From a virus: a DNA stretch of 38,379 nt. The translations under genes were made by a program, and so were the position numbers. Positions 7,121 through 31,422 of this stretch are shown piece after piece. The stretch's first letter is position 1. Every line of letters starts with the position of its first letter. The DNA lies in the IMG/VR virus record IMGVR_UViG_3300032829_000026, positions 1-38,379 of that record; one strand, written 5' to 3'. The notes beneath the pieces were generated by a model, which saw only the letters and a program-made list of their open reading frames with translations, made no database searches and was not told where the DNA came from.

Positions 7121-8263
7121 ATGAGTGAAAATAATAATATACCTGTAAATACAAAAACAAGAAAACCTACGCCAAAAAAAGAGTTTTCATTGGATGATTT
7201 TAAGAAAAATACTGGTTTAGATAAAGGTGTTAAATTTAAGCCAAGAAAATGGTTACCAATAAAAAATATTTTAGGTAACACTGCTTTTATGGATGCTACT
7301 GGTCTTTCAAATGGTTTACCAGCAAATGAAGTTATAAATATTATTGGTCATACAAATACAGGTAAATCATGTTTAATCAATGAAATAGCTTATTCTGCTC
7401 AAAAAAATAATGTATTACCTGTTTTTATAATTACTGAATTAAAATTTTCATGGGAACATTTAAAAATTATGGGTATCGAATATACCGAAAATATTGATGA
7501 AAAAACTGGAGAAATATCATATGATGGTGATTTTCTTTTTATTGATAGATCTAAATTTAATACTATTGAAGAAATGGGAGATAGAATAAATGAAATTTTA
7601 GATTATCAAAAGGAAGGTAGATTGCCACGAGATTTGTGTTTTTTGGTTGATAGCATCGGAACGATTCAGTCTCAAATGAGTTATGAAAAAAGTACATCAA
7701 ATAATGAATGGGATGCGGGGGCAATATCTAAAGTATGGTCAAAATCGATTGTTCCACGTATAAATCTTTGTAAGAAAGATGGTTATCCTTATGATAATTA
7801 TATGGCTGTTATTTGTCAAGTTTGGGTTAGAAAACCTGAAGTTTTTAGAGGATTACCTAAATTAGCAGCAAAAGGCGGTGATACTATTCCATATAATAGT
7901 ACTATTCAAATTGTTTTTGGAAATGTCTCAAATTCAGGTGTTTCGCTTTTGAAAGTAAAGAAAGGCTCAAAAGAGATAGTCTATGCGACACGTACTCGTG
8001 TAAATTTAGCAAAAAATCATTTAACAGGAATATCTTTAATGACAAAAATTGTTGCAACACCTCATGGTTTTATATCTGATTCTCCAAATGATATAATAGC
8101 AAAACAATATTTTAAAGATCATGCTAAAGAATTTATGGAAATATTAGGCGGTGGAAGTATTAATGATGTAACCTTTATTGAAGATAATACTGAAGAAGAA
8201 GAAACAACATATAGAACTTTTGAAAGAACAGAAAATGGTATAGAACATGAAATTGAAGAATAA
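7121..8263 (+). CDS. UvsX/RecA-like recombinase
   Basis: 380 residues, similar in length to T4 UvsX. It forms ATP-dependent filaments on ssDNA and carries out strand exchange for recombination-dependent replication. The Walker A motif is GHTNTGKS at residues 76-83, and the Walker B strand is LCFLVDSIG with D177. An N-terminal linker rich in Lys/Pro precedes the ATPase core, and the C-terminal tail is very acidic (EDNTEEEETTYRTFE). The YMAVICQVWVRKP and LAAKGGDTIPYNSTIQIVF segments are typical of RecA core strands and the DNA-binding loop region. It follows the ssDNA-binding protein gene after a hairpin, and these two proteins cooperate in T4. Expression probably depends on readthrough from 5680. 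Confidence 0.92.
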   Translation: MSENNNIPVNTKTRKPTPKKEFSLDDFKKNTGLDKGVKFKPRKWLPIKNILGNTAFMDATGLSNGLPANEVINIIGHTNTGKSCLINEIAYSAQKNNVLPVFIITELKFSWEHLKIMGIEYTENIDEKTGEISYDGDFLFIDRSKFNTIEEMGDRINEILDYQKEGRLPRDLCFLVDSIGTIQSQMSYEKSTSNNEWDAGAISKVWSKSIVPRINLCKKDGYPYDNYMAVICQVWVRKPEVFRGLPKLAAKGGDTIPYNSTIQIVFGNVSNSGVSLLKVKKGSKEIVYATRTRVNLAKNHLTGISLMTKIVATPHGFISDSPNDIIAKQYFKDHAKEFMEILGGGSINDVTFIEDNTEEEETTYRTFERTENGIEHEIEE

Positions 8264-8339: not shown

Positions 8340-9446
8340 ATGAAATATTATAGTAAAGAATATTGTCATTTAGAAGCATTAAAATATAAAACAAAAGGCG
8401 AATTTCAAAAAAATAGTTCTTATATATATCAAAAAGCATATAAAAATGACTGGTTAAATGAAATATGTTCGCATATGATTGAAATAAAAAAAATTAATGG
8501 ATATTGGACATTTGAAAAATGTAAAAATGAAGCAATTAAATATATTTTAAGAAGTGAATTTAAAAAAAATTCAAGTAGTGCATATAATGCAGCAAGAAAA
8601 AATAGCTGGTTAAATGAAATATGTTCGCATATGATTGAAATACATAAACCAATTGGATATTGGACATTTGAAAAATGTAAGGAAGAATGTTTAAAATATA
8701 ATAAAATAATAGATCTTATTAATAATTCGCCTAGTTGTTATAAAAGAATAAAAAATAAAAATTGGTTAGAACAATTAACGTCTCAATATATAAAAAGTAA
8801 TAGAAAATCTAATAATTATTGGACATTTGAAAAATGTAAGGAAGAAGCATTAAAATATAAAACAAAAAAAGAATTTGAAAAAAAATCTAAAAGTGCATAT
8901 TGTATTGCAATAAAAAATAATTGGTTATATGTAATATGCCAACATATGATTATAAAAAAAAGAATTAATGGTTATTGGAATAATTATGATAATTGTAAAA
9001 AAGCTGCATTAAATTGTAATAGTAGAGAAGATTTTAAAAAAAAATATGGTACTGCATATAGATGGGCACATAAAAATGGATGGCTGGAAGATATGTATAC
9101 GCATATGAAACCTATAGGTGATTTATATAGTAGATTAATATATGCGTATGAATTTTCTGATAAATCAGTTTATGTTGGATTAACATGTAATAGTGATAGA
9201 AGAAAAAATGAACATTTAAATTTATTATCAAAAAAATCAAAATCAACTACAGTTACAAAATATATATTAAAAACAGGATTACAACCAATATATAAAGAAT
9301 TAACTGAATATGTTAATGTAGAAGAAGCACAAAAATTAGAATCATTTTATATTAATTTTTATAAAAAAAATGGATGGATTATTTTAAATAAAATAATCGC
9401 AGGTGGTATTGGTAGATTTAAATTAAAAAATGATTTTATTAAATGA
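8340..9446 (+). CDS. GIY-YIG homing endonuclease with five N-terminal repeats
   Basis: 368 residues. The C-terminal domain from about residue 262 is a GIY-YIG nuclease: IYAYEF as the GIY strand, VYVGLT as the YIG strand, the RRKNEH helix with the catalytic Arg, and the catalytic Glu in KLESFYINF near residue 334. The first 260 residues are five repeats of about 52 residues with the pattern GYWTFEKCKEEA...F...S..AY..A..N.WL..IC.HM, probably helix-turn-helix-like units for target recognition. Repeats 1 and 2 share a 36-nt identical DNA stretch, pointing to recent duplication. Its TGA stop overlaps the ATG of the 5' nuclease gene (ATGA). The setting between recombination and replication genes is typical of a phage homing gene. 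Activity and target are unknown. Confidence 0.87.
   Translation: MKYYSKEYCHLEALKYKTKGEFQKNSSYIYQKAYKNDWLNEICSHMIEIKKINGYWTFEKCKNEAIKYILRSEFKKNSSSAYNAARKNSWLNEICSHMIEIHKPIGYWTFEKCKEECLKYNKIIDLINNSPSCYKRIKNKNWLEQLTSQYIKSNRKSNNYWTFEKCKEEALKYKTKKEFEKKSKSAYCIAIKNNWLYVICQHMIIKKRINGYWNNYDNCKKAALNCNSREDFKKKYGTAYRWAHKNGWLEDMYTHMKPIGDLYSRLIYAYEFSDKSVYVGLTCNSDRRKNEHLNLLSKKSKSTTVTKYILKTGLQPIYKELTEYVNVEEAQKLESFYINFYKKNGWIILNKIIAGGIGRFKLKNDFIK
8342..9110 (+). repeat. Five tandem protein-coding repeats of about 155 bp
   Basis: These encode the YWTFEKCK...WL..IC.HM units of the endonuclease. The DNA around GGATATTGGACATTTG recurs near 8498, 8655 and (variant) 8817. A 36-nt stretch ending ATGATTGAAAT is identical at about 8450 and 8609. 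Confidence 0.75.
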
Positions 9447-10492
9447 AAACACGTACTTTATTAATTGATGGCTCATATTTATTTAAACGTTCAATAAATG
9501 GAGCTAAAGATTTATATACTAATTCTTTTGGCCAAATTTCGGGATTATATCAATCACTTACAAAAATACGATCTTTGATTAAACAATTTTCTATTAACAT
9601 GATTATTATTGCATATGATGGAGAGCAATCTGGAAAATTACGTCATATGTTAGATCATAATTATAAAGCAAATAGAAAATCAAAATCTTGGTATAGTAAA
9701 ATTCAATTATCTGATGCTGAAATAAAAAGAGAACAAGAAAAAGAAGAATCTGCTCTTAAACAAAGAAAAAGATTTCAATCTTATTGTGAAGAACTTTTTA
9801 TAAGACAAATTGAAATTGATGAAATTGAAGGAGATGATGTTATTGCATCATATTGTCTTAAACATAATAATGACAGAGAACTTTATATATTTAGTAGAGA
9901 TTTTGATTATGCTCAATTATTAGATTTAAACATTAGTATAATTTTTCCAAATATTGATGAACCTGTTACAAAACAAAATTTTTATTTTAAATTTGGTTAT
10001 CATTATAGTAATGTATTAACAATGAAAATTATTTGTGGAGATACTTCAGATAATATTAAGGGTATTGAAGGATTAGGCGAAACATTATTATTAAAATATT
10101 TTCCTGAAATGGAATTTGAATATATGAGTGTAAGAGAAATATGTAAAAAGGCTAAAATAATTAATGAAGATAGAATTAAAGAAAAGAAGAAACCTTTAAA
10201 ATGTTTTGAAAATTTATTAAATAATATTGAAAGGTTAAAATTGAATTATAAATTAATAAATTTAAAAGAACCATTTTTAAATAATGAAGCAATTGATGCA
10301 TTAGAACAATTAGATATGCCATTATCACCGGAAAATAGAGGATCAAAAAATTTATATAAAATGATGATTGAAGATGAATTTTTAACTATATATAATGGAA
10401 CATTTGTTAATTATGTTGAGCCATTTTATACTGTTATTATGTACGAAAAGAAGTTATTAGAAAATTATTATAAAAATTTAAAAAATTCTTAA
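9443..10492 (+). CDS. T4 RNase H-like 5' to 3' nuclease (FEN family)
   Basis: 349 residues. Members of this family remove RNA primers and 5' flaps during lagging-strand synthesis. The metal-binding acidic residues are all in place: D9 in LLIDGSY, D59 in IAYDGEQS, E129 with D131/D132 in EGDDVIA, D153 and D155 in SRDFDY, and D200/D203 in CGDTSDN. A helix-3-turn-helix follows (IKGIEGLGETLLLKYF, about residues 205-220). A Lys/Glu-rich arch-like segment lies at about 75-115. The length is slightly greater than T4 RNase H (305). The start overlaps the upstream endonuclease stop, so translation is probably coupled. It fits with the neighbouring ssDNA-binding protein, recombinase and helicase as the replication core. 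Confidence 0.9.
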   Translation: MKTRTLLIDGSYLFKRSINGAKDLYTNSFGQISGLYQSLTKIRSLIKQFSINMIIIAYDGEQSGKLRHMLDHNYKANRKSKSWYSKIQLSDAEIKREQEKEESALKQRKRFQSYCEELFIRQIEIDEIEGDDVIASYCLKHNNDRELYIFSRDFDYAQLLDLNISIIFPNIDEPVTKQNFYFKFGYHYSNVLTMKIICGDTSDNIKGIEGLGETLLLKYFPEMEFEYMSVREICKKAKIINEDRIKEKKKPLKCFENLLNNIERLKLNYKLINLKEPFLNNEAIDALEQLDMPLSPENRGSKNLYKMMIEDEFLTIYNGTFVNYVEPFYTVIMYEKKLLENYYKNLKNS

Positions 10493-10608: not shown

Positions 10609-11229
10609 ATGCAACAAAATAATAAGCAATCAGAGAATTTATTTAAAATTTGTCTTTTTCAAGAAACTAATTTAATTGCTGAAAGAATTTTTCCAGCAGA
10701 TATTATTAGCCCTTCTATTAGAACATCTATTGATGTTAGAAGTATTTTACCGTCTATAATCAGTAAATTACAAAAAACTTTATCAAAAAAAGAATATTAT
10801 TATGAATATGAAATTCAGAATCAAGATAAAGTTGTATATGATTTTCTTGATTATAGAAATAGAATGGTTGAATTGTATCCAAAAAGGATACAAGATATAA
10901 TAAATAAGCAACCTGAAATAAAAAAACAAGTTATTGAAGATAAAATTATAAAAGGTGTTGAATTTAAATTTGTATTTTATATTAATGATAATTTAATTGT
11001 TGAAAGAATTTTTTATGTTAATGGTTATAATAATACAATTAATTATTCAAATGACATAATTTATTTAATTAATGATATTGCTAATAAAATTTATAATTTT
11101 CTTAAAAAAAGTGATATTAATCATATGTGGGAAGATTATGATTTGATTAATAAATATAATTATACAATTCAACAGATTAGAGAATTGCCTAAAATGAAAC
11201 GTGATGATCTTTTAAGAAAGTTATATTAA
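10609..11229 (+). CDS. Hypothetical protein with internally duplicated domain
   Basis: 206 residues, not recognised. Residues 12-60 and 119-167 appear to be two copies of one module. FKICLFQETNLIAERIFPAD followed by a helical end (IISKLQKTLSKK) corresponds to FKFVFYINDNLIVERIFYVN followed by LINDIANKIYNFLKK. The copies are joined by a charged linker (about 61-118). The C-terminal tail contains YTIQQIRELPKMKRDDLLRKL, probably helical. No catalytic motif is seen. A host-type promoter lies upstream and a strong terminator downstream, so it may be a single-gene early or middle unit between two replication genes. Confidence 0.7.
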   Translation: MQQNNKQSENLFKICLFQETNLIAERIFPADIISPSIRTSIDVRSILPSIISKLQKTLSKKEYYYEYEIQNQDKVVYDFLDYRNRMVELYPKRIQDIINKQPEIKKQVIEDKIIKGVEFKFVFYINDNLIVERIFYVNGYNNTINYSNDIIYLINDIANKIYNFLKKSDINHMWEDYDLINKYNYTIQQIRELPKMKRDDLLRKLY

Positions 11230-11326: not shown

Positions 11327-12724
11327 ATGTCAGATATTAGTAATGAAACCATACATACCCTAACTGGTTATTTAGGCCCTGAATTTCAATTAAAATTAAT
11401 GTGGCAATTATTAATTGAACCAGAATTTGCGGAAAAAATAATTTCTTTATTATCTGTTGAATATTTTGATGATCCATCTATGAAAAAGATGTTTATTATA
11501 ATACTTCAATATTTTAAAGATAATGAAAAAGTACCAAACATCCCAAATCAAAGTATAAATCTTGCAATACAAAAATATAAATCTCATAATGATCCAATAG
11601 AAGAAGAATTATTATTAGCAATAATTAATAAAATTAAACTTTGGAATGAAAGAGTATTAAATAAAGATTTATTAAATGATGGTGATGTTATTCAAAGAGA
11701 AACATTTTTATTTATTAAACAACAAGAATATAGAAAATTTTCTGAATTTATTCAAGAAAAAGTAAAAACAGGTGGTATAAAATCAAAAAATATTATTGTT
11801 GAAGTTGAAGAAAAAATAAAAAAAATTGAAGATATTGGTAATGATGAAGATTTTGGTAGTCAAATATTAGAAGAAATTGATGATGTATTAAAAGATGAAT
11901 TTAGAGAAACAATTCCAACTGGTATTGGATTTTTAGATGAAATTACTGGAGGTGGTTTAGGTAAAGGTGAAACTGGTATTATATTGAGTCCCAGTGGGTT
12001 TGGTAAGTCTACAATGTTGACTAAGATTGCAAATACAGGTATTAATGAAGGAAAAAATATATTACAAATTATTTTTGAAGATACTGTTCCACAAGTTAAA
12101 AGAAAACATTATGCAATTTGGTCTAAAGTGCCATTAACACAATTTAAAGGAAAAAAAGAAGTTATTAAAGAAAAAATTACAACATATTTTAATGAAAATA
12201 AACCAGGACAATTAGTAATAAAAAGATTTATTGAAGATGAAACAACAATACCACAATTAAAACAATGGATAATTAGATATCAAAAGAAATTTGGAATTAA
12301 ATTTGATGAAATTATATTAGATTATTTAGATTGTATTGAATCACATAAAAAGACTAATGATGTAAATGAATCTGAAAAACTTATTATTAAATCATTTATG
12401 TCAATGGGAGCTGAACTAGATATTCCTTGTTGGACTGCTGTACAATCAGGTAGATGTGTTGAAATTAATACTATTATTAATTTAAAAAATATAGGAAATA
12501 CAAAAATAAAAAATATTAAAATTAATGATGAAATTTTAACAAATGTTGGTTATAAAAAAATCACTAATATTTTTCCTATAAAAAAGCAAGATGTATATAA
12601 AATTAAATTAAAAAGTGGCAAAGAAATTATATGTTCTGAAAATCATTTATTTCCATTAATTAATAATAAATTAAAATCATTGAAATTAGGATTAACAATT
12701 GGTGATAAACTTTTAACTAAATAA
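11327..12724 (+). CDS. Replicative helicase (gp41/DnaB-like), N-terminal half with N-intein
   Basis: 465 residues: about 376 of helicase and 89 of split intein. The helicase unwinds DNA at the phage fork. An N-terminal helical domain precedes an ATPase core with Walker A SPSGFGKST (residues 221-229) and Walker B FDEIILDYLD (D332). At TAVQSGR376 the helicase sequence stops and C377 begins an intein: block A CVEINTIINL, block B KEIICSENHLF. It ends DKLLTK and a stop, so the ORF alone cannot be a complete helicase. The rest is encoded from 13958 after an intervening endonuclease gene. The intein half closely resembles the gp41-1 split-intein N fragment (CSEEHLFP in that family, from memory). The product must trans-splice with the downstream part. 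Confidence 0.9.
   Translation: MSDISNETIHTLTGYLGPEFQLKLMWQLLIEPEFAEKIISLLSVEYFDDPSMKKMFIIILQYFKDNEKVPNIPNQSINLAIQKYKSHNDPIEEELLLAIINKIKLWNERVLNKDLLNDGDVIQRETFLFIKQQEYRKFSEFIQEKVKTGGIKSKNIIVEVEEKIKKIEDIGNDEDFGSQILEEIDDVLKDEFRETIPTGIGFLDEITGGGLGKGETGIILSPSGFGKSTMLTKIANTGINEGKNILQIIFEDTVPQVKRKHYAIWSKVPLTQFKGKKEVIKEKITTYFNENKPGQLVIKRFIEDETTIPQLKQWIIRYQKKFGIKFDEIILDYLDCIESHKKTNDVNESEKLIIKSFMSMGAELDIPCWTAVQSGRCVEINTIINLKNIGNTKIKNIKINDEILTNVGYKKITNIFPIKKQDVYKIKLKSGKEIICSENHLFPLINNKLKSLKLGLTIGDKLLTK
12455..12721 (+). other. Split intein, N-terminal fragment (89 residues)
   Basis: It begins with the nucleophile C377 right after QSGR and ends at the ORF stop. Block A (CVEINTIINL), the NDEILTNVGYKKITNIFP strand pair and block B (CSENHLFPL, with the conserved His) are visible. 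The length matches natural gp41-type N-inteins (about 88-90 residues). Confidence 0.9.
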
Positions 12725-12732
12725 TTTATATT

Positions 12733-13989
12733 ATGTATTATAAAAATATAAATGAATTATTAAAATTAAAAATTTATAAAGATTTAATTATTGATGAAAT
12801 AAATAAAGATTTTATATATTTAGAATTAAATAAAATAATAGAAAAATATTCATCCGAAGAATTACAAAATAGGCATATTAATATTTACACATTTATAAAA
12901 TATAATGTATCTAATAAAATAAGTTGGATAGATAGGCTTAAAATTATCGTTAATAAATTAAAACAGGATTCAAGTTCATTGTATAGTTTAGAAATAAGAT
13001 ATGGTAAAGAAAATGCTTTAAATGTTTTTAATGAAAAAAATAAAAAAACAGCTATTACTTTAGATTATTATATAAAAAAATATGGTGAAAAAGAAGGAAA
13101 GATAAAATGGAAAAAGAAAAATAAATATAATGGTTGTTCATTAAAAAATTATATTAAAAGATATGGTAAAGAATTAGGCGAACAAAAATGGAATAAATAT
13201 CTTAATAAAAGATCTGAAACATATAAAAATAATAAACTTAAAGGAAAAAAATATAAAACTGGTTTATCTTTAAAAAAATTTATTAATTTATATGGTAAAA
13301 AAGAAGGAAATGAAAGATGGAATAAAATGAAAAAGAAAACATATATAAAAAATGTATATAAAAATAGTGAAAAATATTTAATAAAAAAATATGGAAAAGA
13401 AGAAGGCATGAAAAAAAGAAAAGAATATTTAGAAGAAAAAGATCATAATTCATTATCATATTTTATTAAAAAATATGGTGAAGAAGAAGGAAATATAAAA
13501 TATAAAAATCATTGTAAAAAACTTTCATATTGTAATAGTTTAGAATATTATATAAAAAAATATGGCGAAAAGGGTAAAGAAAAATGGAATGAACGTAGAA
13601 ATAAAACAATTTTTAAAAAAAATAAATTATCAAAAGTATCACAAGAATTATTTTGGAGAATATATAAAAAAATACATTATAAATTAAGAAAATATTGTTA
13701 TTTTGGCGAATTAAATCATGAATATTTTTTTAAAACAAAAAATACTATATATTTTTGTGATTTTAATTTAAAAAATATTATTATAGAATTTGATGGAGAA
13801 TATTGGCATTCTAAATTAAAAATGATAGAAAGAGATAAATTAAAAAATAATTTATATGAAAATTTAAATTATAAAGTTTTAAGAATTTCTGAACGAGATT
13901 ATTATAATGATAATTATAATATTATTAATAAATGTTTAAATTTTATAAAAGAAAATTATGACAAAAAATGGATTAGAAAATTTAATTGA
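12733..13989 (+). CDS. Free-standing Vsr-like homing endonuclease within the fractured helicase gene
   Basis: 418 residues. The C-terminal domain (about 303-415) has a Vsr-like/PD-(D/E)XK signature: E330, D343 in CDFNLKN, IIIEFDGEYWH (E352, D354, H359), D368 in ERDKLKNNLY, and a KVLRISERDYY strand. This resembles the EDxHD homing endonucleases found between split-intein halves. Residues about 110-290 carry six copies of a YxIKKYGxxxGxxxWxxx unit, plus a weaker one near 86-99 (SLEIRYGKENALNVF). These are Lys-rich and probably contact DNA. The gene starts 8 nt after the N-intein stop, and its last 32 nt overlap the start of the C-intein ORF. It presumably cuts intein-free helicase alleles at the insertion site, which is inferred from the arrangement. 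Confidence 0.88.
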   Translation: MYYKNINELLKLKIYKDLIIDEINKDFIYLELNKIIEKYSSEELQNRHINIYTFIKYNVSNKISWIDRLKIIVNKLKQDSSSLYSLEIRYGKENALNVFNEKNKKTAITLDYYIKKYGEKEGKIKWKKKNKYNGCSLKNYIKRYGKELGEQKWNKYLNKRSETYKNNKLKGKKYKTGLSLKKFINLYGKKEGNERWNKMKKKTYIKNVYKNSEKYLIKKYGKEEGMKKRKEYLEEKDHNSLSYFIKKYGEEEGNIKYKNHCKKLSYCNSLEYYIKKYGEKGKEKWNERRNKTIFKKNKLSKVSQELFWRIYKKIHYKLRKYCYFGELNHEYFFKTKNTIYFCDFNLKNIIIEFDGEYWHSKLKMIERDKLKNNLYENLNYKVLRISERDYYNDNYNIINKCLNFIKENYDKKWIRKFN

Positions 13990-14092
13990 AGATGAAATAA
14001 TCTCAATTGAATATATTGGTAAAAGAAATACTATTGATATAACTGTTGAAGATAGTCATATGTATTTTGCTAATGATATATATACTCATAAT
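13958..14092 (+). other. Split intein, C-terminal fragment (45 residues)
   Basis: From MTKNGLENLIEDEI to THN at 14090-14092, with Ser (14093-14095) as the +1 residue. The length and the ...YFAND...THN ending match gp41-type C-inteins. Confidence 0.9.
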
Positions 14093-14641
14093 TCTGGTTT
14101 TTCTGCCGAATGGTTAGAAGCCGGGCATACTGGAGGCAGTATAAAAAGGGTACAAAAGACACATTTATTACTTTCAATAGCAAAAACTCAAGCGCAAAGA
14201 GAAAATGATTTAGCAAATATAAAAATTATCAAAGCACGTTTTGCTAAAGATGGACAACAAATTGAAGATTGTATATTTAATAATGATACATTAGAAATAA
14301 GAGCAACAAATAATAGTTGGCGATCAACAGTTAAGAAATATGATGAAAAAGATTTAGAAAGTATTGAAGATAAAACATTAAGATTACATGCTGAAGTTTC
14401 AAATTTTGATGAAGTATATAACATTACTGATAATAAAGAATCAATAATGTCAAATCTTAATTTTGATAATGAAAGTACTATTAATAGTAATATTGAAAAT
14501 AAAAAAGAAGAAATAATATTTCCAATAAAAAATACTGATTCTAAATATGGTGATGTTGATGATTTTATTAAAAATTTAATGGAAGGTAAATTAGATAATG
14601 AAGATAAAAATATAATTAATAATTTAATGGATAATAAATAA
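13958..14641 (+). CDS. Replicative helicase (gp41/DnaB-like), C-intein plus C-terminal half
   Basis: 227 residues: a 45-residue C-intein and 182 residues of helicase. The intein part ends SHMYFANDIYTHN, the classic C-terminal block with penultimate His and terminal Asn45, and the +1 extein residue is Ser46. The extein resumes SGFSAEWLEAGHTGGSIKR, then LLLSIAKTQAQREN and IKIIKARFAKDGQ, typical of the C-terminal RecA-fold strands of phage DnaB helicases. Joining R376 to S46 restores the motif TAVQSGRSGF, and the mature protein would be about 558 residues. The tail is acidic and Asn-rich. The ATG at 13958 lies inside the endonuclease gene in another frame. The next gene starts 1 nt after the stop. 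Confidence 0.9.
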   Translation: MTKNGLENLIEDEIISIEYIGKRNTIDITVEDSHMYFANDIYTHNSGFSAEWLEAGHTGGSIKRVQKTHLLLSIAKTQAQRENDLANIKIIKARFAKDGQQIEDCIFNNDTLEIRATNNSWRSTVKKYDEKDLESIEDKTLRLHAEVSNFDEVYNITDNKESIMSNLNFDNESTINSNIENKKEEIIFPIKNTDSKYGDVDDFIKNLMEGKLDNEDKNIINNLMDNK

Positions 14642-14642
14642 T

Positions 14643-15383
14643 ATGAATATTGAAATAAATAAAGTATATTTAGGCGATTGTTTAGAAATTATGAAATATA
14701 TACCTAATAAATTTATAGATCATATAATTTGCGATTTACCTTTTTATAAAATTGTTAAAGATGAATGGGATAATCAATGGAAAACAGAAAATGAATATAT
14801 TAATTGGTGTAATAAAATAATTATTGAATATAAAAGAATAATTAAAGATAATGGTAATATTTTTTTATTTACCGGAAGGCAATATAATAGAAAAATTGCT
14901 ACAATACTTGATAAATATTTTAATGAAAAAAGAATAATTATTTGGGCAAGAAAAAGAAATTTTAATAATACAAGAGGTAAAGCATTGGCGAGTGGATATG
15001 AACCAATTTGTTATTATTGTAATGGTGAAAATGGAATATTTAATAATATTAAAATAAAAATAAATAGTAAAAGAAAAGAATATGTTGATGGCTTTTTGAA
15101 AGATGGTATTACATTAAGTGATGTCTGGAATGATATATCTGCTATACCACATAATTCTAAAGAAAAACTAGATCATTCAACACAAAAACCACTTAAATTA
15201 ATTGAAAGAATTGTTGAAATAGGGACAAATACAAATGATTTAATTTTAGATAATTGTTGTGGCAGCGGTACATTAGGAGAAGCATGTATTAATTTAAAAC
15301 GTAATTTTATTATGATAGATAAAGAAGAAAAATCATATAATATTTCTTTTAATAGAATTAATAACTTGATAAATAATAAATAA
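14643..15383 (+). CDS. Site-specific DNA methyltransferase (beta-class order)
   Basis: 246 residues. It transfers a methyl group from SAM to DNA, probably adenine N6 or cytosine N4. Motif IV is DLPF at residues 31-34 (usual form [DNS]PP[YFW]), followed by YKIVKDEWDNQW. Motif X-like HSTQKP is at 178-183, and motif I LDNCCGSGT at 202-210, with acidic MIDKEEK in the next strand. The order IV...X-I is that of beta-class enzymes. No restriction endonuclease gene is adjacent. It starts 1 nt after the helicase C-half and is followed by a terminator, so it closes the replication operon. A role in protecting phage DNA from host restriction is likely. The recognition sequence is unknown. Confidence 0.87.
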   Translation: MNIEINKVYLGDCLEIMKYIPNKFIDHIICDLPFYKIVKDEWDNQWKTENEYINWCNKIIIEYKRIIKDNGNIFLFTGRQYNRKIATILDKYFNEKRIIIWARKRNFNNTRGKALASGYEPICYYCNGENGIFNNIKIKINSKRKEYVDGFLKDGITLSDVWNDISAIPHNSKEKLDHSTQKPLKLIERIVEIGTNTNDLILDNCCGSGTLGEACINLKRNFIMIDKEEKSYNISFNRINNLINNK

Positions 15384-30192: not shown

Positions 30193-31422
30193 ATGGCATT
30201 AATACAAACAAATTTAAATAAACAACCTATTATTTTAGGCGATTCAGCATCAAATGATAGTTTTGGAAGATTAAGAGTTTCAGAACCATATTCATTGATT
30301 GATACTGTTTTTCAATATGGTACTAATCCATTATTTTGGCAATCATATTTTCCTAGTGGAGGTAGTATTACTCATTTACCAAATGAATCTGCTATTCAAT
30401 TATCTGCAACTACTGTTAATGGATGTGTTTTAATTAGACAATCATTTGATTATTTTCGTTATCAACCAGGACGTTCTCAAACACTTCTTATGACTGGTGT
30501 TATGGGTGCAAAAAAAACAAATGTAACACAAAGATTAGGCTTATTTGATGATAGTAATGGTTTATTTTTTGAACAAGATGGTACTAATTTAAAAATAGTT
30601 GTTAGAACATATACATCTGGTTCTGTCGTAAATAATAGTATTAATCAATCATCATGGAATATTGATAAATTAGATGGAACTGGCCAATCTCAACTTCAAT
30701 TAGATATGTCTAAAGCACAAATATTTATTATTGATTTTGAATGGCTTGGGGTTGGGCGTATAAGATTTGGTTTTAATATTAATGGTATTACATATTATTG
30801 TCATCAAGTATTAAATGCTAATAGTATTAATACTGTTTATATGACAACAGCTAATTTACCTTTAAGATATGAATTAAGAAATACTGGTACTGTTGCTTCC
30901 ACAACAATAATGAAACAATTATGTTCTGTTGTAATGAGTGAAGGTGGAACTAAAGAATATGGCATTATGCATACTGCAAGTAATGGAGCAACAGCAATAG
31001 CTGTTACTACAAGACGAGCTATATTAAGTATAAGACCTAAAACAACTTTTAATAGTATTGTTAATAGAGGAATTATTTCGCCTGAACAATTTAATATTTT
31101 TTCAGATTCTGATATTTATTATGAAATTGTTCATAATGGTACATTAGGCGGTTCACCATCATTTACATCAGTTAGTACAAATTCTATTGTTGAATATGAC
31201 GTTGCTGGTACAACAGTTACAGGTGGTGAAGTTATTGATGCTGGATATTTACCGGCAAGTGCTGGTGGTATACAATATAGTTTTTTAAATAATATTTTTA
31301 TTAGATTGCCATTATCCTTAGATATAAATGGAGCAAACCCAAAAAATTTATCAGTTGTTATAACATCACTTAGTGGTACAGCAAATGTTCGTGCAACTTT
31401 AAAATTTAGAGAATTATATTAA
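30193..31422 (+). CDS. Conserved phage virion protein, SFGRLRVSEP type
   Basis: 409 residues, beta-rich. The N-terminal motif SFGRLRVSEPYSLIDTVFQYG and the QSFDYFRYQPGRSQTLLMTG, VTQRLGLFDDSNGLFFEQDG and FEWLGVGRIRFGFNING stretches are features of a structural protein family that I associate from memory with many phages, including marine ones. The fold may be a jelly roll with a host-surface role. It is the last gene of the transcription unit that contains the lysis pair. The function remains unspecified. Confidence 0.7.
   Translation: MALIQTNLNKQPIILGDSASNDSFGRLRVSEPYSLIDTVFQYGTNPLFWQSYFPSGGSITHLPNESAIQLSATTVNGCVLIRQSFDYFRYQPGRSQTLLMTGVMGAKKTNVTQRLGLFDDSNGLFFEQDGTNLKIVVRTYTSGSVVNNSINQSSWNIDKLDGTGQSQLQLDMSKAQIFIIDFEWLGVGRIRFGFNINGITYYCHQVLNANSINTVYMTTANLPLRYELRNTGTVASTTIMKQLCSVVMSEGGTKEYGIMHTASNGATAIAVTTRRAILSIRPKTTFNSIVNRGIISPEQFNIFSDSDIYYEIVHNGTLGGSPSFTSVSTNSIVEYDVAGTTVTGGEVIDAGYLPASAGGIQYSFLNNIFIRLPLSLDINGANPKNLSVVITSLSGTANVRATLKFRELY

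What the first reader, a model, noticed from the sequence alone, without database searches (positions are those of the whole stretch)
11327..14641. Fractured replicative helicase: split intein halves separated by an endonuclease gene
The helicase gene is cut at TAVQSGR/SGF. The first ORF ends with an 89-residue N-intein (C377...CSENHLFP), and a later ORF begins with a 45-residue C-intein ending THN before Ser. Between them sits an independent Vsr-like endonuclease gene. This matches the fractured-gene layout described for gp41-type split inteins, which includes the very fast gp41-1 intein. It is valuable as a complete locus within its replication operon.
Basis: partly seen in the sequence, partly recalled or inferred. 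Interest (0 to 1): 0.85.

Follow-up and report, generated by a model that had tools for sequence, protein, structure and literature searches.

The report
Phage helicase split by mobile intein
A virus of bacteria carries its DNA-unwinding enzyme as two separate gene pieces, each ending or beginning in half of a self-splicing protein tag and separated by a DNA-cutting gene; this is a known kind of arrangement, and comparison with relatives strongly suggests that the tag halves and the cutter move together between viruses as one selfish element.

Summary
The DnaB/gp41-like helicase is cut between QSGR and SGF; ORF 11327-12724 ends in an 89-aa N-intein, ORF 13958-14641 begins with a 45-aa C-intein, and a free-standing 418-aa endonuclease gene (12733-13989) lies between. 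The joined halves match the gp41-1 intein (PDB 6qaz, E 1.8e-22); the endonuclease matches I-Bth0305I/Vsr (profile E 9.7e-6; model Z 11.2). This is a new member of the known 'fractured gene' kind. The insertion point lies three residues upstream of gp41-1's (gp41-1 junction partly recalled). Relatives (93 loci) add more than the window alone: a sister with a 93% identical helicase has no intein; the N-intein-endonuclease-C-intein block swaps as one unit between divergent helicases; the +1 residue is Ser in 35/35 carriers but only 14/21 empty alleles; endonucleases decay or vanish while the split persists; and within one lineage split and fused (contiguous) inteins sit in 93%-identical phages, so the two states interconvert. 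Trans-splicing and DNA cleavage themselves are inferred, not shown.

The parts
11327..12454 (+). helicase N-extein (376 aa; Walker A at codons ~220-228, Walker B, ends at motif Q-S-G-R)
   Evidence: 93% aa identical to the intact intein-free helicase of L002
12455..12724 (+). N-intein, 89 aa (Cys1 ... SENH block B) and stop TAA
   Evidence: Cys1 35/35 and block-B His64 36/36 in relatives
12733..13989 (+). free-standing homing endonuclease, 418 aa: helical N-part with 'KYG...G...W' repeats (about residues 107-290), catalytic EDxHD/Vsr-like domain (about 295-410)
13615..13962 (+). catalytic domain of the endonuclease (invariant E330, D343, E352, D354, H359, D368 in 20 relatives)
13958..14092 (+). 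C-intein, 45 aa (..FANDIYTHN); start codon inside the end of the endonuclease gene
   Evidence: an ATG start is kept in all split relatives examined
14093..14641 (+). helicase C-extein, 182 aa, beginning with the nucleophile Ser+1
   Evidence: dN/dS 0.11 against L002
12395..12454 (+). last 20 codons before the insertion point, DNA only 68% identical to L002 (rest of the N-extein, apart from codons 211-240, 91-98%): candidate co-conversion or footprint tract

Best explanation
The locus is a fractured gene carrying a mobile split intein. Two precursor proteins are made, helicase-N/IntN and IntC/helicase-C. The intein halves associate, Cys1 starts an N-to-S acyl shift, Ser+1 takes over the N-extein, Asn45 cyclises, and a continuous 558-aa DnaB-type replicative helicase is released (inferred from conserved chemistry and homology, not shown). 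The gene between them makes an EDxHD homing endonuclease that cuts intein-free helicase alleles of co-infecting phages near QSGR|SGF (inferred); repair copies IntN, endonuclease and IntC together, with some flanking extein DNA, into the empty allele. Movement of the three parts as one unit is supported directly by sequence comparison of relatives.
For: Anatomy. Joined halves match the gp41-1 intein, E 1.8e-22. Cys1, block-B His, THN and Ser+1 invariant in all carriers; Ser+1 in 35/35 carriers but 14/21 empty alleles, Fisher p 5e-4 (rows are related, so p is optimistic). Both helicase halves under purifying selection, dN/dS 0.11. No second DnaB in the record or in 16 relatives' records up to 349 kb. 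Endonuclease: profile hit to I-Bth0305I 3r3p 9.7e-6, model Z 11.2 to 3r3p and 10.3 to Vsr. Mobility as a unit: L041/L051 exteins 69% but cassette 92% identical (bootstrap range of the difference 0.19-0.27), boundaries at the insertion point; the reverse in L065/L094, exteins 94%, cassette 77%; the window's sister L002 is intein-free. A homologous endonuclease sits between split polB halves in Aeromonas phage Aes123.
Against: No splicing or cleavage was measured. The window's own endonuclease target is unknown. Its intein is 65% identical at best to any relative found, so no recent donor is seen for this very copy. The local divergence from L002 at the insertion point may come from either lineage.
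Confidence: 0.92

Rival explanations
1. The two helicase pieces work as a non-covalent two-subunit enzyme and the intein halves are inert leftovers.
For: Some split phage genes do work as separate subunits (general knowledge); splicing was not measured here.
Against: All splicing residues and Ser+1 are invariant in 35-36 distinct carriers while Ser+1 varies in empty alleles; the cut lies between motif Q..R and the rest of the ATPase core.
Confidence: 0.03
2. The helicase is a decaying pseudogene in a genome with another helicase.
For: The window is only a fragment of the genome.
Against: dN/dS 0.11 on both halves; 16 relatives' records, several over 150 kb, show one DnaB_C place at most (two records with very divergent helicases gave no hit, so sensitivity is limited).
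Confidence: 0.02
3. The endonuclease is an unrelated free-standing gene that happened to insert into the intein and plays no part in spreading it.
For: Split inteins without endonuclease persist in several lineages (L021, L023, L027, L040, L045, L080).
Against: Endonuclease and intein halves share the same low synonymous divergence against much higher divergence of the exteins in L041/L051 and L065/L059; the same endonuclease family sits inside fractured TerL, PolB, RNR and other DnaB genes.
Confidence: 0.05
4. Assembly or sequencing artefact.
For: Metagenomic record.
Against: Same three-ORF layout in 39 loci from many independent samples.
Confidence: 0.005

Closest known systems
gp41-1 split intein (fractured gp41 helicase gene; PDB 6qaz)
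   Same: DnaB-type phage helicase, motif H3 region, split after about 88-89 residues, Cys1, THN, Ser+1; homologous sequence
   Different: About 41% (IntN) and 43% (IntC) identity to recalled sequences; insertion point R|SGF, against SGY|SSS for gp41-1 (SSS from PMC7090010, SGY recalled), i.e. three residues apart when aligned to cyanophage gp41 QTTRSGY
gp41-8 split intein
   Same: Insertion point R|S by recall; IntC 52% identical to the recalled sequence
   Different: IntN only 37% identical; the native locus of gp41-8 could not be read here
Aeromonas phage Aes123 split polB (JN377899)
   Same: Host gene half with N-intein, homologous VSR endonuclease, half with C-intein, all overlapping
   Different: Host gene is DNA polymerase B; its intein is cysteine-less (PMC11923092), this one has Cys1
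I-Bth0305I, EDxHD homing endonuclease (PDB 3r3p)
   Same: Catalytic domain by profile (E 9.7e-6) and fold (Z 11.2)
   Different: 3r3p is deposited as a mobile intron protein; here the gene is free-standing between intein halves, with long helical repeats

Membership tests
Fractured gene (Dassa et al. 2009 arrangement) | Host gene in two ORFs, each fused to one intein half | tested here: met
Fractured gene (Dassa et al. 2009 arrangement) | Separate endonuclease gene between the halves, of the Vsr-like/EDxHD family | tested here: met
   the defining paper itself is not held, its content is recalled and cited through PMC11766414
Fractured gene (Dassa et al. 2009 arrangement) | Protein trans-splicing | not testable with these tools
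   residues conserved, activity unmeasured
Split intein, class 1 (Cys1, block-B His, HN, Ser/Thr/Cys+1) | Catalytic residues present | tested here: met
gp41-1 type intein | Sequence homology over both halves | tested here: met
   E 1.8e-22
gp41-1 type intein | Same insertion point in the helicase | tested here: not met
   three residues apart (gp41-1 C-junction SSS, N-junction recalled)
gp41-1 type intein | Ultra-fast splicing | not testable with these tools
   no kinetics
EDxHD homing endonuclease | Catalytic domain homologous to I-Bth0305I, Vsr-like fold | tested here: met
EDxHD homing endonuclease | Cuts the intein-free allele and drives copying | tested here: inconclusive
   cassette swapping is seen in relatives, cleavage unmeasured

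The most novel reading that the evidence does not exclude
In this phage helicase family split and contiguous inteins are interchangeable allelic states: the three-gene cassette homes as a unit and fractures or replaces alleles, and after loss of the endonuclease the split intein either stays split or re-fuses into a cis-splicing mini-intein, repeatedly. Split inteins would then be one phase of a homing cycle and not an evolutionary dead end.
Probability: 0.6. Interest if true: 0.65.

Novelty: new member of a known kind. Interest (0 to 1): 0.5.

Why it matters
Fast natural split inteins such as gp41-1 came from metagenomic data, with little locus context that I could read here. This locus has its neighbours, an intein-free sister and dozens of relatives in every stage: empty, split with endonuclease, with decayed endonuclease, without endonuclease, and fused. 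That makes two open questions testable: whether fractured-gene endonucleases drive homing of the whole cassette, and how split inteins arise and revert. The roughly 36 distinct intein pairs are also candidates for protein-ligation tools.

Tried and rejected
The defining papers (Dassa 2009; Taylor 2011) are not held, so their content rests on recall and citing papers. L079 first looked like an endonuclease fused to IntC; a stop codon lies between. L020's endonuclease likewise ends at a stop before the nominal end. Direct donor of the window's intein: none found; the nearest intein is L022, 65% identical. Polarising the dips between window and L002 with L003/L004 gave counts too small to assign them to one lineage. 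A single origin of the fused inteins was tested and rejected on the helicase tree (AU p 6.7e-10), but recombination at this locus weakens the use of any one tree, and the fused forms of L047-L093 share a linker length, so one fusion plus re-splitting inside that clade is not excluded. PF03796 missed two very divergent helicases (records of L080 and L092).

Full report
What is there. The window is a linear 38,379-base virus record; a structural gene at 30193-31422 has its best named relatives in Puniceispirillum phage HMO-2011 and cyanophages. Its replication region runs: UvsX-like gene (7121-8263), a repeat-rich probable endonuclease gene (8340-9446), 5'-3' exonuclease (9443-10492), unknown (10609-11229), helicase first half (11327-12724), endonuclease (12733-13989), helicase second half (13958-14641), N6/N4 DNA methylase (14643-15383).

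The first helicase ORF carries DnaB_C positions 2-183 and reaches motif Q-S-G-R, then 89 residues of N-intein. The last ORF starts with 45 residues of C-intein ending in THN, then Ser and the rest of the helicase. Joined, the 134 intein residues (searched with three extein residues) find gp41-1 in the PDB at 1.8e-22, ahead of every other intein. Pfam, NCBIfam and PHROGs agree on the domains.

Relatives. Two scans of IMG/VR gave 93 loci, 56 distinct beside the window. At this one site they show: no intein (31 loci); split with endonuclease or a remnant of one (39, among them L052, whose endonuclease has four in-frame stops, L056, a remnant, L022, with an internal deletion, and L092, without the catalytic domain); split without endonuclease (11, with spacers up to about 60 bases or short overlaps); fused, contiguous mini-inteins of 129-132 aa (11); one cut by the contig end. 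The split forms end IntN at residue 89-93 (103 in L023) and start IntC with an ATG.

Intein chemistry is under selection in nature. Cys1 (35/35), block-B His (36/36), THN (36/36) and Ser+1 (35/35) are kept in carriers; in intein-free alleles the +1 residue is Ser in 14 and Leu, Ala, Asp, Gln, Glu or Gly in 7 of 21. The window's sister L002 has Leu there. Both helicase halves of the window evolve at dN/dS 0.11 against L002. No record examined holds more than one DnaB_C place.

The endonuclease. A profile of 20 relatives finds the catalytic domain of I-Bth0305I (3r3p) at 9.7e-6 as its best solved match. The model's C-terminal domain (residues about 295-410) aligns with 3r3p at Z 11.2 (2.3 A over 94 residues) and with E. 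coli Vsr at 10.3; Foldseek ranks 3r3p first, with an E-value that alone would not count (0.16, probability 1.00). E330, D343, E352, D354, H359 and D368 are invariant. Aeromonas phages carry a homologue between their split polB halves, and a scan with the profile finds the family inside fractured terminase, polymerase B, ribonucleotide reductase and other DnaB genes.

The cassette moves as a unit. L041 and L051 have helicase exteins 69% identical but IntN-endonuclease-IntC 92% identical, with the step at the insertion point and a flank of about 100 bases at intermediate identity; synonymous divergence is 1.43 and 1.0 in the exteins against 0.26, 0.31 and 0.30 in the three cassette parts. L065 and L094 show the reverse, exteins 94% and cassette 77%. 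In the helicase tree the window sits with L002 (support 99) inside a clade whose two other members are also empty, which fits a gain in the window's lineage, though loss in the others is not excluded.

Split and fused forms. L093 (fused) and L065 (split with endonuclease) are 93% identical over 4.7 kb and differ at the intein by the presence of the endonuclease and the reading frame. L071 (fused) is sister to L076 (split) elsewhere in the tree. All outgroups are split, and the endonuclease tree follows the helicase clade, so loss of the endonuclease with re-fusion is the simpler direction; inside the L047-L093 clade the direction is open.

Footprints. The window and L002 are 91-98% identical along the N-extein except at codons 211-240 (73%) and 357-376 (68%). 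The first spot is the Walker A site, where other relatives carry a second insertion; the second is the present insertion point. L003 and L004, both empty, dip at the same two places (71%, 70%). Pairs with at least one empty allele show more such divergence at the second site than pairs with both occupied (Mann-Whitney p 0.009, seven against eight pairs, tested after the first two had been seen). Past homing events or escape by recoding would both explain it.

Verdict. A correct and well-read finding of a known kind. What is shown: anatomy, homology, conservation, cassette swapping in relatives, state changes. What is inferred: trans-splicing, cleavage of the empty allele, and that homing put this copy here.

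Noticed in passing
L093 5960-6040 and L065 4672-6040; L071 5935-6060; L072 3555-3640: Fused (contiguous) and split versions of the same helicase intein in phages 93% identical over 4.7 kb; at least two, probably more, switches.
   Followed up: partly
window 11957-12046 (codons 211-240); L003 and L004: Second local dip in DNA identity at the Walker A insertion site although the window and L002-L004 carry nothing there; possible footprint of past homing.
   Followed up: partly
L014 2034-3098, L017 2782-3855, L032, L034 and others: Relatives carry a second, roughly 1.07-kb insertion at the helicase Walker A codons (about codon 228), probably a full-size in-frame intein; in L147 the DnaB gene looks fractured near that site.
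   Followed up: no
L170, L172-L177 (terminase), L164 (polymerase B), L165 (ribonucleotide reductase), L163 and L147 (DnaB): The same endonuclease family sits between intein halves of other fractured genes; the terminase ones have a short N-intein and a long C-intein, and in L177 the C-half also holds a LAGLIDADG intein.
   Followed up: partly
window 8340-9446: Repeat-rich ORF of PHROG 20046 (unknown) between the UvsX-like and exonuclease genes; by eye its end looks GIY-YIG-like (VYVGLT), but Pfam does not confirm it. L003 and L004 match it several times over, as if it had several copies there.
   Followed up: no
L045 versus L046: Near-identical helicase exteins (dS 0.18) with very different N-inteins (dS 1.2) but similar C-inteins (dS 0.18), both without endonuclease: the N-half alone seems to have been exchanged.
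   Followed up: no
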